Assembly: GCA_028279685.1 (NCBI GenBank)
Contig: JANQNG010000059.1
Location: forward strand, 62,001-126,000
Source of the DNA: Candidatus Nanoarchaeia archaeon
GTDB taxonomy: Archaea > Nanobdellota > Nanobdellia > Woesearchaeales > SKIA01
Length of the DNA: 64,000 nucleotides
Direction: 5' to 3'
The notes under the pieces are model-generated. The model was given only the letters and a program-made list of their open reading frames with translations. It was not told where the DNA came from and did not search any database. The position numbers and the translations under genes are program-made. The stretch's first letter is position 1. Every line of letters begins with the position of its first letter. Shown here in pieces: positions 4,165 to 63,695 of the stretch.

Positions 4165-4480
4165 TATTCTGCAATTTTATGACTCCATTCTTCATTAGTA
4201 GAAAGCATCTTCAGCAGTTATCGGGAAAAATGCTTCGCGTTTTTCAGATTACAAAAAACGCGTACTCAGCAGTTACTCCATTCTTCAATGGTCTTGCGAC
4301 CTCGGATGGTGTTCACTTCATCATAGTACGCGTAATATGGTAAGAAGTCATCATTTATAGCGTTTTTTGTAACTCCACTCGTCAACGACTTCGCAGTCTC
4401 GGATGGTGTTCATAACAAAAATGCTTTGCATTTTTGAACTGGCAAACAAGTTTGTCAGCTTCATCACAGGATGCATATAG
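4165..4480. repeat. Repeat-rich intergenic region with hairpins and decayed gene ends
   Basis: The 4162-4580 gap has no convincing gene. It holds the direct repeat TCAGCAGTTA (4211-4220, 4266-4275), CTCGGATGGTGTTCA (4301-4315, 4398-4412) and three copies related to CTCCATTCTTC. Hairpins with three-base loops are AAAAATGC-TTC-GCGTTTTT (4226-4244) and CAAAAATGC-TTT-GCATTTTTG (4416-4436). Read on the minus strand the repeats look like successive copies of one protein C-terminus, so this appears to be a pile-up of 3'-end duplications. Confidence 0.6.
4266..4350 (-). pseudogene. C-terminal gene remnant ending in EEWSNC
   Basis: On the minus strand this frame reads NDDFLPYYAYYDEVNTIRG then RKTIEEWSNC and a TGA stop, a protein-like C-terminus with no gene body upstream. 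Related tails follow on either side: MNTIRDCEVVDEWSYKKRYK (stop at about 4351) and STNEEWSHKIAEYS (stop at about 4160). The parent gene is not in this window. The last ten bases (TAACTGCTGA) are repeated after a 45-base hairpin insert. Confidence 0.4.
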
Positions 4481-18970: not shown

Positions 18971-19459
18971 TCATAACTGTTTTTTTACCCAATCTATAAG
19001 ATCTTTTGTGACGAATAAGGAAGAATCAAGATATAACTTATTAAGGATTTTTTTGGTTTCTTTTATTGTTATGAGCTTCATCGCATAAGCTCTTGTTATT
19101 ATACCTATGGTGCCGTGCACTTTAAATCCTAAATGTTTTCCAATGCTTCTTGCTTCTAAGTCATCTGTAAGAAACAATTTGATTTTTTCTTGTTTTCCAA
19201 GCGCTATTGCTGCTGATTCTCCAGCACCCAAGCCATATTTATGTTGGATTGATTTGGCAATATCTTTTGATCTTCCATTTAATTTTACAACAGAAAGTTG
19301 AGGCATATCTCTTTTGTTAAAGTTATGTTTCTTTATTTCTTTATGTACTTCAGGTGGAATAATGACGCTTTTGACTGTTCTCAAAAGATGTAGGGCACAA
19401 ACTTCTTTAAGATGAATAAGGGGCCCTGCATCAAGAACAACTAAGCTAATCTTTTTCAT
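18971..19459 (-). CDS. PIN-domain (DUF3368-type) VapC-like toxin
   Basis: The product is 162 residues. PIN-domain acidic residues are visible in VVLDAGPLIHL (first Asp), GAGESAAIALG (Glu) and LFLTDDLEAR (Asp pair). PIN nucleases cut RNA with Mg2+. It starts inside the 3' end of the CopG-like gene (14 bp overlap), so the pair is a toxin-antitoxin operon. Confidence 0.8.
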   Translation of the reverse strand: MKKISLVVLDAGPLIHLKEVCALHLLRTVKSVIIPPEVHKEIKKHNFNKRDMPQLSVVKLNGRSKDIAKSIQHKYGLGAGESAAIALGKQEKIKLFLTDDLEARSIGKHLGFKVHGTIGIITRAYAMKLITIKETKKILNKLYLDSSLFVTKDLIDWVKKQL

Positions 19460-19640
19460 GAAGTCCCCACATCACATCTTCTTTTATTGCAGTTTCAAGT
19501 TTTTCTGATTTTGTTCGACGAACAAGTTCTCGTACAGCATCTCGTATTAATTCGCTCTTGTTAGCATACCATCCTTCTCGTATTAACTCTTCCGATTCGA
19601 GCACAAGTTTTTCTGTCATTTTCGCTGGTACTGTAATCAT
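19446..19640 (-). CDS. Ribbon-helix-helix antitoxin (VapB-like)
   Basis: The product is 64 residues. A short N-terminal strand (MITVPAKMTEKLV) is followed by two helices (LESEELIREGWYANKSELIRDAV), the ribbon-helix-helix DNA-binding fold. The tail should wrap the PIN toxin. It is the first gene of the pair and should repress the operon through the palindrome just upstream (19653-19672). Confidence 0.78.
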   Translation of the reverse strand: MITVPAKMTEKLVLESEELIREGWYANKSELIRDAVRELVRRTKSEKLETAIKEDVMWGLHEKD

Positions 19641-19878: not shown

Positions 19879-20187
19879 ATGACAAAAACAGCTTTTCTTG
19901 AGGCATTTGGAGATACTCCAACACTCAGAGTATTGGATTTTCTTGTGGTAAATGAAGATTTTGATTACAGTATGACTGATATAGCTAATCTTTCTAAGGT
20001 GGGTTATGCAACATTGAAGTTGTTTTGGAAGAAATTAGAAAGGAATAAAATAGTGGAGCAAACAAGGACAGTGGGTAGGGCAAAAATGTATTCATTAAAC
20101 AACACCAATCCTGTTGTCAAAAAATTCAGAGATTTCTATTGGACAGCAACAAAGGTGAAGATACGTGAAAAAGAAATTCTTGCTTAA
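19879..20187 (+). CDS. Small winged-helix transcription regulator
   Basis: The product is 102 residues with a compact winged HTH: TLRVLDFLVVNEDFDYSMTDIANLSKVGYATLKLFWKKLERNKIV, then a wing (QTRTVGRAKMYSLN). Short archaeal regulators of this kind usually act as dimers. A TATA box (AAATATTTAAATAG, 19847-19860) gives a leaderless start. Its stop codon lies at the edge of the 78-bp duplicate of the EamA gene end, so an insertion has separated two formerly convergent neighbours. Confidence 0.75.
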   Translation: MTKTAFLEAFGDTPTLRVLDFLVVNEDFDYSMTDIANLSKVGYATLKLFWKKLERNKIVEQTRTVGRAKMYSLNNTNPVVKKFRDFYWTATKVKIREKEILA

Positions 20188-20263
20188 AGCAACAATAACG
20201 CAATACCTGCAATCATAATGACTGCGAAGATGGCTTTTTCCAATACTTTATGATCATGGAACA
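20186..20263. repeat. Duplicated 3' end of the EamA gene (distal copy)
   Basis: These 78 bp match 21842-21919 at 77 of 78 positions (A for G at one site). In the other copy they are the last 26 codons of the EamA gene, minus strand. Here they are cut off from that gene by 1578 bp holding two genes. The near identity suggests a recent event. Confidence 0.9.
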
Positions 20264-20274
20264 ATACAATAGTA

Positions 20275-20619
20275 TTATTGATAAACGAGATTAGCGTAAG
20301 ATAACTCTGGAAGTGTCGTATAATAGAATTTGTTTTTTTGAGTTTGTACGTAATTGACTATGTCTCTATCATTTGTTTTTTTAGAAAGAGATTTGTGTAG
20401 TCTTTCCATAAAATTATCAAATAACGGGATTGTAGGTATTTCGGTAACTCCTGTTTGATATTTTTTATCATTTTCTAATTCTTGAAGTATCTGAGGTGAA
20501 TTCTGCTCAATAAAATGTGCAATTCTTTTATTGTATTCTTCTGTTATTTGATTTGTTAGCTCCATTGTAATATGAGGTTCTTTGGAAATTATAAATTTTG
20601 TGAATTTATAGCAAGCCAT
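20275..20619 (-). CDS. Small partner of the phosphoribosyltransferase-like protein
   Basis: The product is 114 residues, helical and charged, and not recognised. Segments include LTNQITEEYNKRIAHFIEQNS and FDNFMERLHKSLSKKTNDRD. It overlaps the upstream 391-residue gene by 14 bp, so the two are co-translated. Both lie inside the insertion between the 78-bp repeats. A toxin, antitoxin or binding-partner role is possible but has no direct support. Confidence 0.6.
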   Translation of the reverse strand: MACYKFTKFIISKEPHITMELTNQITEEYNKRIAHFIEQNSPQILQELENDKKYQTGVTEIPTIPLFDNFMERLHKSLSKKTNDRDIVNYVQTQKNKFYYTTLPELSYANLVYQ

Positions 20620-21781
20620 TTAAATTGTTTCTTACCACGTTTTTTAGCACCCTCTCTATATACCTTAGTTTAGATACTGGTTTTATTGCTAATTCATCAT
20701 AGTTTATTTTTCGTTCTACTTCCATATCTGTTATTCTTTCAATGGCTGCGACTTCTATATTCCCTGAATATTCTTTCAACATCTCTTTAATATCAAAAAG
20801 AGTGTTGCCTGAGAAAACATTATCATCAACAACCATAATTCTTTTTCCTATAAGTTCATTAGTTTCACCGATTATTTGTTGCGGGATATATTTTTTTATG
20901 GTAGATGGAGAATCATCTTCCCCATATCTTGAATATTTTATAAGAAAAATATTGTTAATTTTTTCTATATTTTTTATTGAATAAATTGATTTCAACGCAT
21001 ATCCTATTTCAAGAGCACCATATAAAGGATTAACGACAAAATCAATCATGTCAGTTTTGTCTTGTCTTAATAATTGACCTGCAAATAATAATATCTGCAT
21101 GGGATGATCCATTTCTCTTATTAACATTTTTCTTGCTGCAGGTTCTCCCTCTGGTTTAAATTCAGTTGGATCTTTTGCTTTTGGGAAAATTATTCTTTTT
21201 TGGAATATATCAATAATTTCCTCGGAAAAACTACTTTGTTCACCTAATTCTTGAGTTAATAAGAATTGGTAATAATTTGATATGTCTTTAACACAGTTAT
21301 TCTTCGCTTCTTCATATAATGACAAATCTAATTCTTTATCTAGCATGTGGAAAAAGAATGAATTAAATATTGCCATGTCATAATGTTTTTTATGGTCTAA
21401 AATACTGCTCAAAAGAAGTTTTGATTCTAAAGTATCAGCGTAATCTGAATTTATATCCATAATTACTTCACTAACTTCGTTAAGATATTTTGTCATAAGA
21501 GGAAGAACTTTGTCAAGATTATCTTTTTCAATGATGTTCAAATAATATTTTTTTGATCTGAGATATGTTGTTCCATTATTTTTGTTACTTATGCTTTCCA
21601 AATATTTTTTTATTCTATTAGGGAATTTATCTAATTGTTTGTTAAATGAATTCTCTGATATTTTGATTCCGCCAGCATAGTCATAATATTTTAACATTTT
21701 TAGAATCTCTTTTGTTTCTTTCGGTGTAAATAAATTATTGAGAAAGGTAGAAGGAGTTTCTAGATAAGCTATTTCTGGCAT
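20606..21781 (-). CDS. Protein with C-terminal phosphoribosyltransferase-like domain
   Basis: The product is 391 residues. The C-terminal third (about 255-380) has the type I PRTase fold signature: KRIMVVDDNVFSGNTLFDIKEML is the PRPP loop (two acidic residues, then SGNT). It is preceded by DFVVNPLYGALEIGYAL, a usual first strand and helix. The first 230 residues are helical and unrecognised. PRTase domains of this stand-alone type occur in nucleotide salvage and in some conflict systems. The mobile context favours an accessory role, which is inference. Confidence 0.7.
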   Translation of the reverse strand: MPEIAYLETPSTFLNNLFTPKETKEILKMLKYYDYAGGIKISENSFNKQLDKFPNRIKKYLESISNKNNGTTYLRSKKYYLNIIEKDNLDKVLPLMTKYLNEVSEVIMDINSDYADTLESKLLLSSILDHKKHYDMAIFNSFFFHMLDKELDLSLYEEAKNNCVKDISNYYQFLLTQELGEQSSFSEEIIDIFQKRIIFPKAKDPTEFKPEGEPAARKMLIREMDHPMQILLFAGQLLRQDKTDMIDFVVNPLYGALEIGYALKSIYSIKNIEKINNIFLIKYSRYGEDDSPSTIKKYIPQQIIGETNELIGKRIMVVDDNVFSGNTLFDIKEMLKEYSGNIEVAAIERITDMEVERKINYDELAIKPVSKLRYIERVLKNVVRNNLNGLL

Positions 21782-21839
21782 ATTGTTGTTATTGTATGTT
21801 TATTTATAAAAGTTTCTTTTTTTAACTACTTATAAGTGC

Positions 21840-22721
21840 TCAAAGCAACAATAACGCAATACCTGCAATCATAATGGCTGCGAAGATGGCTTTTTCCAAT
21901 ACTTTATGATCATGGAACATTTCATGACCGAAAAAGACATCAAATAATGAAGAAACTCTCAGGATTAATCCTGCAATGGCAATTTCTATTACTTTTATGC
22001 CTTCGAAATAAAGAAACAAACCTGCATTAAGGCAAACAGCAGCAAATAATGAATCTTTCCAATCTTTGAATCCTGCTTTAATATCTTGCCAACCATTGAA
22101 TTTCCATAAAACTAGAATTATCATATTTATCAACATAGCAACCCTTGTGAAAAATAGAATATCAAAGGAATTCATTGGAGGGATAGATAATCCTAATGAT
22201 GAAGGAAAAAGGAGTGCTTTGTCAAAACCATAAAGAATAGCAAAGATTGCTGCAGCAATTAAAAAATGTTTTATGTTGGGATTTTTGAGTATCTGATTTA
22301 GCTTGAATTGATGATGTATGAATGATTCCATGAAGTAGAAGGATCCAAGAATCAAGATTGCTCCAAATGTTTGTTTCACATCAAGGTGTTCACTAAATAT
22401 CAATACCCCGACAAGAAGAACAAATAATGGTTGAATAGATGTTATTGGTCCAAATTCGGATAATTCTGTCTCTTGAATTGTCTTCATAAAAAAATAGTAT
22501 CCTGTTGTTGCGAGAATTCCATAAATTACAAGTATTATCCAGATTTGGAGAGGATAGTTAAAACTTAGATTTTTAATAAATGGGAGAAGTGTTATCACGA
22601 CGAAAAACTGTGCGGAAATAATGAACTGAATAGTTTTTTCCCGATTTGTTCCTCGCTTGACGAATACATCATATAACGCGAATACTAATGCTGCGAGAAT
22701 TAATAGTATGTACCCGTTCAT
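21840..22721 (-). CDS. EamA/DMT-family transporter
   Basis: The product is 293 residues with about ten TM helices in two EamA repeats (residues 1-135 and 150-293), the drug/metabolite transporter layout. It starts MNGYILLILAALVFALYDVF. The substrate is unknown; a permease of metabolites or nucleotide sugars is possible. Its 3' end is duplicated at 20186-20263. It shares a strand with the glycosyltransferase upstream (22 bp apart), so an envelope-sugar link is conceivable. Confidence 0.85.
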   Translation of the reverse strand: MNGYILLILAALVFALYDVFVKRGTNREKTIQFIISAQFFVVITLLPFIKNLSFNYPLQIWIILVIYGILATTGYYFFMKTIQETELSEFGPITSIQPLFVLLVGVLIFSEHLDVKQTFGAILILGSFYFMESFIHHQFKLNQILKNPNIKHFLIAAAIFAILYGFDKALLFPSSLGLSIPPMNSFDILFFTRVAMLINMIILVLWKFNGWQDIKAGFKDWKDSLFAAVCLNAGLFLYFEGIKVIEIAIAGLILRVSSLFDVFFGHEMFHDHKVLEKAIFAAIMIAGIALLLL

Positions 22722-60430: not shown

Positions 60431-60436
60431 AAATTT

Positions 60437-60528
60437 GCTTCCGTGGCTTAGTCTGGCTAGAGCGGGTGGCTGTTATCTCTTATGAGAAAGAGACCACCAG
60501 GTCCCCGGTTCGAATCCGGGCGGAAGCG
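60437..60528 (+). tRNA. tRNA-Asn(GTT) with 17-base anticodon-loop intron
   Basis: Acceptor GCTTCCG/CGGAAGC pairs fully; D-stem GCTT/GAGC; anticodon stem GGTGG/CCACC; T-arm CCCGG-TTCGAAT-CCGGG; discriminator G73, as expected for Asn. The anticodon loop is CTGTTA plus A once a 17-base intron (TCTCTTATGAGAAAGAG) after position 37 is removed, giving anticodon GTT. This is the usual archaeal 37/38 intron site. No CCA is encoded. Confidence 0.88.
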
Positions 60529-60641
60529 TTGCTTTTGATCGGAACAGGAGAAATCCGTGCGCTTGAGTCCGAAGGACGAAACGCACATTTGGATGATAAC
60601 CTTTTCTAAAGGTTATGTTCTTGTATCCGGGCGGAAGCGTT
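60514..60641 (+). repeat. Duplicated tRNA-Asn 3' end bracketing a 94-bp hairpin cassette
   Basis: ATCCGGGCGGAAGCGTT occurs exactly at 60514-60530 (the end of tRNA-Asn, from the T-loop on, plus two bases) and again at 60625-60641. The 94 bp between contain a 30-base double-stem hairpin (60557-60586), shared in form with the tRNA-Val cassette, and ATAACCTT-TTCT-AAGGTTAT. No ORF fits inside. Confidence 0.85.
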
Positions 60642-60670
60642 TATCATAAGCGTGGCTTATGGTATGGAAT

Positions 60671-60845
60671 GACCTCGTAGCTTAGCCTGGGAAATGGTTA
60701 CGCTCATTTCATACGCAAAGGGCGGCATGCGCTCCTTCGGAGCTTAGCCGACCGCGTTGAAGCGTATTTGGGCATTAGAGTGCTCGACTGATATGCTTAC
60801 GCAATAGACATCGAGTGGTCCCGAGTTCAAATCTCGGCGAGGTCA
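60671..60845 (+). tRNA. tRNA-Ile(GAT) with anticodon-loop intron and large D-loop insertion
   Basis: Acceptor GACCTCG/CGAGGTC pairs fully; anticodon stem CTCGA/TCGAG; T-arm CCGAG-TTCAAAT-CTCGG; discriminator A73. Removing 16 bases (TGCTTACGCAATAGAC) at 37/38 gives loop CTGATAA, anticodon GAT (Ile). The D-loop (AGCCTGG...TTA) is split by about 80 bases (about 60691-60772) that fold into GAAATG/CATTTC and ATACGC/GCGTAT stems, the latter enclosing GCTCC-TTC-GGAGC. This must be spliced out unless the gene is dead. Confidence 0.8.
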
Positions 60846-60961
60846 TCTTTTCTTTTCTTAATTGTGTTTTAGAAGGATTTGAACTCTCCGAGTTCACCCT
60901 CAAAGCCTTCGGCTTTAGGGCCATTCGAGCTTCGCTCTCATCGGAATCTCGGCGAGGTCAT
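60830..60961 (+). repeat. Duplicated tRNA-Ile 3' end bracketing a hairpin cassette
   Basis: AATCTCGGCGAGGTCAT occurs exactly at 60830-60846 (end of tRNA-Ile) and 60945-60961. The second copy has its T-stem start too (CCGAGTTCA, 60888-60896), but split from the rest by 48 bases holding AAAGCC-TTC-GGCTTT and GAGC-TTC-GCTC. So the downstream copy is a tRNA 3' fragment with hairpins inserted in its T-loop. Confidence 0.8.
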
Positions 60962-61014
60962 TTTATTTTTTCTTAGTCAGTTACGCTTTTATATTATTGA
61001 TTATTCTCGTCTTT

Positions 61015-63499: not shown

Positions 63500-63615
63500 G
63501 ATGAGGCTGTTTGGAGTCAAACCAGCGATAAACTGCGCGCAGTTTATAATCATGCATGCGTTTCGCACTTCGTGCTCAAGCGCATGGATGTGATGAGGCT
63601 GGCCGGAGTCGAACC
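63500..63615 (-). repeat. Diverged copy of the tRNA-Val 3' end with hairpin cassette
   Basis: Plus-strand 63500-63523 (GATGAGGCTGTTTGGAGTCA, then AACC) matches the end of tRNA-Val at 63592-63615 with four changes in 24. Between them (minus-strand order) lie the covarying hairpin at 63556-63585 and a perfect 20-base palindrome ATAAACTGCGCGCAGTTTAT (63528-63547). The layout equals that behind tRNA-Asn and tRNA-Ile. Confidence 0.75.
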
Positions 63616-63695
63616 GGCGACCTTCGGTGAGTGAGACCAACGTCATCTATGGATCTAGCCGTTATTGGCTTGATAAGCCACTAGACCACAGCCTC
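63594..63695 (-). tRNA. tRNA-Val(CAC) with 28-base D-loop intron
   Basis: Acceptor GAGGCTG/CAGCCTC; T-arm GCCGG-TTCGACT-CCGGC; discriminator A73. The D-arm reads GTCT-AGTGGCTTA-TGAC once 28 bases (CAAGCCAATAACGG..., to ATAGAT) are removed. The anticodon stem TTGGT/ACCGA holds loop CTCACTC, anticodon CAC (Val). Base 37 is U instead of the usual purine, which lowers confidence in the identity. The mature length would be 74. Confidence 0.65.

What the first reader, a model, noticed from the sequence alone, without database searches (positions are those of the whole stretch)
20186..21919. Recent insertion that duplicated the last 78 bp of the EamA gene
Seen: 77 of 78 identity between 20186-20263 and 21842-21919, with two foreign-looking genes between. 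The same logic (gene 3' end copied beyond new DNA) appears at three tRNAs and at 4211-4275. Inference: an integration mechanism aimed at gene 3' ends, protein-coding as well as tRNA.
Basis: partly seen in the sequence, partly recalled or inferred. Interest (0 to 1): 0.8.

Follow-up and report, generated by a model that had tools for sequence, protein, structure and literature searches.

The report
Integrase-less cassette replacing a gene's end
In an uncultured archaeon (Woesearchaeota), a tiny two-gene block with no insertion enzyme of its own sits at the end of a transporter gene and seems to have brought its own copy of that gene's last ~80 letters; similar blocks, some carrying toxin-antitoxin pairs, occur at other gene ends in this genome and in one from another family, suggesting an uncharacterised way for small gene packets to move.

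Summary
Joining the flanks through one copy restores EamA, overlapping the convergent HTH gene at the stop codons.

It is not a one-off. Scanning ~2.2 Mb of Woesearchaeales DNA gave five more protein-gene cases; one, in another family and at a different gene, carries a homologous phosphoribosyltransferase inside an exact 77-bp repeat. Two cassettes sit at tRNA ends. Cargo is 1-2 genes (two MNT-HEPN pairs among them), no integrase. Upstream controls gave none.

The copies are two alleles rather than a target-site duplication: 20 of 31 codon differences are synonymous (20% expected), three are stop-codon swaps, and homology ends within 4 bp of the stop codon. So the cassette carried, and swapped in, a functional gene 3' end. 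One sister target is empty in a congener.

Integration at protein-gene 3' ends is known for integrase-bearing archaeal elements; the integrase-less form with many different targets is the new part. The recombinase is unidentified.

The parts
20181..20263 (-). distal repeat copy (R'): probably the original EamA 3' end, now cut off from the gene; includes the overlap with the HTH stop codon
   Evidence: 81/83 to 21837-21919; joining the flanks here restores EamA ending at 20184
21837..21919 (-). proximal repeat copy (R): present 3' end of EamA, probably imported with the insert (stop TGA instead of TAA, one A/V difference)
20264..21836 (.). inserted segment, 1,573 bp, 27.4% GC
20606..21781 (-). 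391-aa protein: ~220-residue N-terminal part of no known family plus a phosphoribosyltransferase domain (PF00156)
   Evidence: Pfam E = 1e-6 over residues 236-344; homologues in own genome C78 and in G097:C15
20275..20619 (-). 114-aa small protein overlapping the end of the phosphoribosyltransferase gene; possible partner, no family
21840..22721 (-). EamA transporter gene, the integration target
   Evidence: PF00892 E = 2.6e-28
19879..20187 (+). HTH gene, convergent native neighbour of EamA
60436..60640 (+). tRNA-Asn and, about 111 bp after its end, a 16-nt copy of its 3' end (60625-60640)
60670..60962 (+). tRNA-Ile (84-nt intron) and an 18-nt copy of its 3' end at 60945-60962
63502..63695 (-). 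tRNA-Trp (63594-63695) and a weak copy of its 3' end 92 bp downstream
   Evidence: below the cut-off used

Best explanation
A small integrative gene cassette. Its DNA carried a functional copy of the EamA 3' end next to a phosphoribosyltransferase/small-protein pair. Recombination between that copy and the chromosomal EamA end, within the ~80-bp homology, inserted the cassette just after EamA. The gene kept a complete but substituted 3' end (attL-like) and the old end was left distal (attR-like) beside the HTH gene. The cassette encodes no recombinase, so recombination was probably done in trans (host, helper element or co-resident enzyme). The cargo is probably of the toxin-antitoxin/defence kind. 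Shown: the architecture, its recurrence at other genes and in a genome of another family, the two-allele nature of the repeats over the set, an empty site for one sister case. Inferred: which copy is imported in the window, the intermediate, the trans-acting enzyme, the cargo function.
For: Homologous PRTase in another family inside an exact 77-bp copy of a different gene's end. Six protein targets and two tRNA targets with 1-1.7-kb inserts. After removal of paralogs, strong tail copies lie downstream of genes, none upstream. 20/31 codon differences synonymous vs 20% expected, stop-codon swaps in three targets, homology ends within 4 bp of the stop codon in all six. Joined flanks restore EamA overlapping HTH at the stop codons. 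TrmI-pelota junction empty in congener G096 and differently filled in G006.
Against: No recombinase in any cassette; G097, the richest genome, has one PF00589 gene (probably XerA), no PF16795 and no PF00239 match. No shared core motif in the repeats. No circular form or second strain seen. The EamA pair itself has only two differences, so its two-allele status rests mainly on the sister cases.
Confidence: 0.55

Rival explanations
1. One-ended homologous recombination with chromosomal DNA of a relative (homology-facilitated illegitimate recombination): the incoming fragment held the relative's EamA end and its next genes; one end recombined by homology, the other joined illegitimately inside the EamA end and so duplicated it. 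No mobile element is needed.
For: Explains two alleles, the lack of recombinase genes and of a common motif, and the tight or overlapping junctions between cargo and target genes. The process is documented in bacteria (PMC3240628).
Against: Homology stops at the stop codon in all six cases although coding identity is up to 100%; a relative's chromosome should share some downstream sequence. Repeat lengths fall in a narrow range (50-121 bp). Homologous cargo sits at different genes. TrmB is not TctA's neighbour in 29 relatives.
Confidence: 0.25
2. Remnant of a larger integrase-bearing element (provirus, plasmid) that integrated at the EamA 3' end and lost everything except two cargo genes.
For: Gene-end integration by integrase-bearing archaeal elements is known (PMC6563490). 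G000 does hold several integrase genes.
Against: All eight cassettes are 1.0-1.7 kb with packed 1-2-gene cargo and both repeats kept; independent decay to the same compact form is unlikely, and no integrase remnant is seen.
Confidence: 0.12
3. Target-site duplication by a transposase-like or reverse-transcription mechanism.
For: Direct repeats flank the insert; the G097 ftsZ-side pair is 77/77.
Against: A target-site duplication starts identical and the cut-off copy then decays without coding constraint; here differences are mainly synonymous, with stop-codon swaps. Lengths of 50-121 bp ending at the stop codon are unlike known transposases (established knowledge).
Confidence: 0.05
4. Assembly artefact.
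For: The window lies in an 80-contig draft assembly; reads were not available.
Against: Independent assemblies show the same design with homologous cargo, and copies differ in a codon-aware way.
Confidence: 0.02

Closest known systems
[quoted passage not shown] 2019, PMC6563490)
   Same: Direct repeats at a gene 3' end, target gene kept functional, protein genes (an AsnC regulator among them) and tRNAs used as targets in the same genomes
   Different: Those are proviruses, casposons, conjugative and cryptic elements, typically multigene; thaumarchaeal att sites are mostly under 26 bp and crenarchaeal ones 29-69 bp. Here 1-2 genes, no recombinase, repeats of 50-121 bp at protein genes
Phage 21 / e14 integration into icd of E. 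coli (from memory, not tested)
   Same: The element carries a diverged copy of the gene's 3' end and substitutes it, leaving the old end distal
   Different: Those are large elements with their own integrase
CIMEs (cis-mobilizable elements) flanked by attL/attR without integrase (PMC7563491, PMC5704250 found; definition from memory)
   Same: att-flanked, integrase-less, dependent on recombination in trans
   Different: CIMEs derive from ICEs/IMEs and share their att sites with a helper; here every target is different and no helper is seen
ShosTA and other phosphoribosyltransferase-bearing defence/toxin-antitoxin systems
   Same: Phosphoribosyltransferase-domain protein in a small mobile pair; weak hit to ShosT (E = 0.0033 over 46 residues)
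   Different: Extra N-terminal half; the small partner matches no known family

Membership tests
Site-specifically integrated archaeal element (attL/attR at a gene 3' end) | Direct repeats flanking the insert, one completing the target gene's 3' end | tested here: met
Site-specifically integrated archaeal element (attL/attR at a gene 3' end) | Element encodes an integrase | tested here: not met
   Two genes only, neither a recombinase; same for the sister cassettes
Site-specifically integrated archaeal element (attL/attR at a gene 3' end) | Empty site in a close relative | tested here: inconclusive
   No congener for EamA. TrmI sister case: empty in G096, other genes in G006
Site-specifically integrated archaeal element (attL/attR at a gene 3' end) | Excision / circular form | not testable with these tools
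   needs reads
Site-specifically integrated archaeal element (attL/attR at a gene 3' end) | Common core sequence among sites used by one recombinase | tested here: not met
   no 7-mer shared by three or more of six repeats, no dif-like or unusual inverted repeat
CIME | attL/attR-flanked element without integrase and conjugation genes | tested here: met
CIME | att sites shared with a helper ICE/IME | not tested
Transposon with target-site duplication | Repeats identical at insertion, then decaying without coding constraint | tested here: not met
   20/31 codon differences synonymous, stop-codon swaps
ShosTA | ShosT-like phosphoribosyltransferase paired with ShosA (DprA-like) | tested here: not met
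   weak partial ShosT hit, no ShosA match
MNT-HEPN toxin-antitoxin (sister cassettes G097:C14 and C26) | Adjacent MNT and HEPN genes | tested here: met
   nucleotidyltransferase-domain hits above cut-off; HEPN just under the cut-off in C14 and above it in C26

The most novel reading that the evidence does not exclude
Some Woesearchaeales have a general cassette-transfer pathway in which 1-2-gene packets (toxin-antitoxin or defence-like) travel with a functional copy of a host gene's 3' end and are inserted at that gene, protein-coding or tRNA, by a host or helper recombinase that reads homology or DNA structure rather than one fixed sequence. The ~100-bp hairpin inserts at tRNA ends would be its empty or minimal form.
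Probability: 0.2. Interest if true: 0.85.

Novelty: new variant of a known kind. Interest (0 to 1): 0.55.

Why it matters
Small defence and toxin-antitoxin modules move often between prokaryotes, frequently without a visible vehicle. A recurring footprint, a replaced gene 3' end with the old one left behind, gives a way to find such moves, to order them by synonymous divergence and to locate empty sites. In an uncultured lineage it narrows the search for the vehicle to a trans-acting recombinase or to homology-driven uptake.

Tried and rejected
Searches for the PRTase in viral contigs, phage records and solved structures gave nothing useful. The AlphaFold model of the PRTase had mean pLDDT 42 and was not used for a fold search. 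Repeat pairs in G097:C20 are tandem paralogous genes, and C24, C35 and G013 hits are paralogs or local duplications; all were dropped. Raw counts of end matches were not directional before paralogs and arrays were removed. TrmB is not TctA's neighbour in relatives, so relatives gave no empty TctA site either. The ORF remnant before the own PRTase paralog has no second copy in the genome. The 4211-4275 claim was checked and dropped. Rfam finds only tRNAs in the tRNA-end region tested. Literature searches found no report of such elements in Woesearchaeota; absence from that library is weak evidence.

Full report
OBSERVATION. The right-hand copy is the end of EamA (21840-22721, minus). The left-hand copy lies at the stop codon of a convergent 102-aa HTH gene (19879-20187). 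The two genes between are a 391-aa protein with a phosphoribosyltransferase domain (PF00156, E = 1e-6) and a 114-aa protein of no known family. The insert has 27.4% GC, lower than every 1,573-bp window sampled across the 64 kb. Joining the flanks through one repeat copy restores a 293-aa EamA that ends at 20184, overlapping the HTH stop at 20187. Such a junction is expected of native neighbours, so the distal copy is taken as the original end and the copy now on EamA (TGA instead of TAA, one A/V difference) as imported. That polarity is an inference.

RECURRENCE. The PRTase has two homologues in about 700 genomes searched: a shortened one in the same genome (G000:C78) and a full-length one in G097, a genome from another family of the order whose contig matches the GenBank record of Woesearchaeota isolate AB_69_Bin_160. 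In G097 the PRTase and a following 150-aa ORF lie between two exact 77-bp copies of the 3' end of an 89-aa gene next to ftsZ. The architecture is the same, the target gene is different, and the cargo orientation relative to the target is reversed. The two small partner proteins are not detectably related. A scan for direct repeats at ORF ends over about 2.2 Mb (G097 0.89, G000 0.58, G013 0.40, G016 0.20, G006 0.14 Mb) added a TctA-like gene (G000:C78, cargo TrmB-type regulator + 153-aa protein), a TrmI-like methyltransferase gene (G097:C15, cargo 294 aa), a SPASM-like gene (G097:C10, cargo a broken membrane protein that I read as a glycosyltransferase, without a family hit) and an AsnC-like gene (G097:C14, cargo MNT + HEPN). 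The names TctA, TrmI, SPASM and AsnC are my reading of the sequences. Two tRNA genes in G097 have similar cassettes: C23 (37-nt repeat, 248-aa cargo) and C26 (tRNA-Ser, 18-nt repeat, MNT + HEPN).

CONTROL. Raw counts of gene-tail matches were not directional, because paralogs and repeat arrays dominate. After removing these, strong matches of gene tails lie downstream of their gene in the six cases above, and none that is not a paralog lies upstream (paralogous arrays identified). This filtering was partly by inspection. Another 256 kb in short loci from about 50 related genomes gave no further case beyond the GenBank copy of G097. The phenomenon is therefore patchy: common in G097, present in G000, not seen in the stretches of the others.

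TWO ALLELES. Over the six protein targets the copies differ in 31 codons, 20 of them synonymous (65%), where random placement of the same number of substitutions gives 20% (no equal in 5,000 simulations). TctA is 8/8 synonymous, including TGA/TAG; TrmI keeps TLPKRAG..FIT.ARKV in both copies at 77% DNA identity; EamA and SPASM also swap stop codons. The test pools sites and does not model codon bias or transitions, and the signal comes mainly from TctA and TrmI, but the effect is large. Homology stops within 4 bp of the stop codon in all six; in the AsnC case the distal copy reads past the new stop. So the copies were functional gene ends in separate lineages before they met. This excludes a target-site duplication for the diverged cases and fits an incoming segment that carries just the coding remainder of the target gene, as the attP sites of gene-end-targeting phages do (established knowledge; not tested here).

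EMPTY SITE. EamA cannot be tested: no other species of the genus is held. For TrmI, congener G096 has TrmI overlapping pelota with nothing between; G006 has two unrelated genes there, without a recognisable tail copy; G097 has the cassette. That site is variable and empty in one congener.

MECHANISM. No cassette encodes a recombinase. G097, the richest genome, has one PF00589 gene, of about the size (269 aa) of the top match in most relatives and hence probably the housekeeping XerA, and no PF16795 or PF00239 match, at 91% completeness. G000 has five PF00589 matches, four above the cut-off. The six repeats share no 7-mer in three or more, no unusual inverted repeat, and nothing like a Pyrococcus-type dif site recalled from memory. 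So either a trans-acting enzyme reads homology or structure, or several helper integrases were involved, or plain homologous recombination did it. One-ended recombination with a relative's chromosome is the main rival. The sharp stop-codon boundary and the recurrence of related cargo at different targets count against it; the lack of recombinases counts for it.

TRNA ENDS. In G000, G097 and G006, 16 of 39 tRNAs have their last 11-18 nt repeated 53-197 bp downstream, against 0 of 11 in G013 and G016, and 0 of 50 upstream. The window's Asn, Ile and Trp tRNAs show this, Trp only with a weaker match. The inserts carry no gene and fold better than most shuffles (z -4.4 to -1.7 in six tested). In the Ile, Ser, Glu and Cys cases they hold an inverted copy of the same tRNA's T-arm (read). 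Whether these are minimal cassettes, another element or an RNA feature is open.

VERDICT. Known kind: integration at gene 3' ends in archaea (PMC6563490). New variant: integrase-less 1-1.7-kb cassettes that replace gene ends, some with toxin-antitoxin cargo, in Woesearchaeales.

Noticed in passing
window 60436-60640, 60670-60962, 63502-63695; also G000:C18, C24 and C79 and many G097 tRNAs: tRNA 3' ends (11-18 nt) repeated 53-197 bp downstream beyond gene-less, hairpin-rich inserts; 16 of 39 tRNAs in three genomes, 0 of 11 in two others. Several inserts hold an inverted copy of the same tRNA's T-arm.
   Followed up: partly
window 4179-4480: Hairpin-rich, 64-89% similar short repeats (AAAAATGCTTYGCRTTTTT and others) downstream of a 110-aa ORF; looks like small palindromic elements.
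   Followed up: partly
L046 8079-10141 (G000:C78): Second PRTase-family gene in the same genome, 329 aa, lacking the PRPP-loop part of the domain, directly followed by an MNT and a HEPN-like gene.
   Followed up: partly
L130/L154 = G097:C25:56903-58099: Exact 104-bp duplication of a radical-SAM-like gene's end with a ~220-bp hairpin-rich insert: a gene-less look-alike at a protein gene.
   Followed up: no
window 18971-19640: PIN-domain gene with an upstream RHH-type gene next to the HTH gene: likely VapBC-like toxin-antitoxin pair; the HTH protein itself weakly matches PADLOC PDC-M05A.
   Followed up: no
G097:C15, TrmI-pelota interval (L047, L123, L124): Variable site: empty in G096, two unrelated genes in G006, cassette in G097.
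   Followed up: partly
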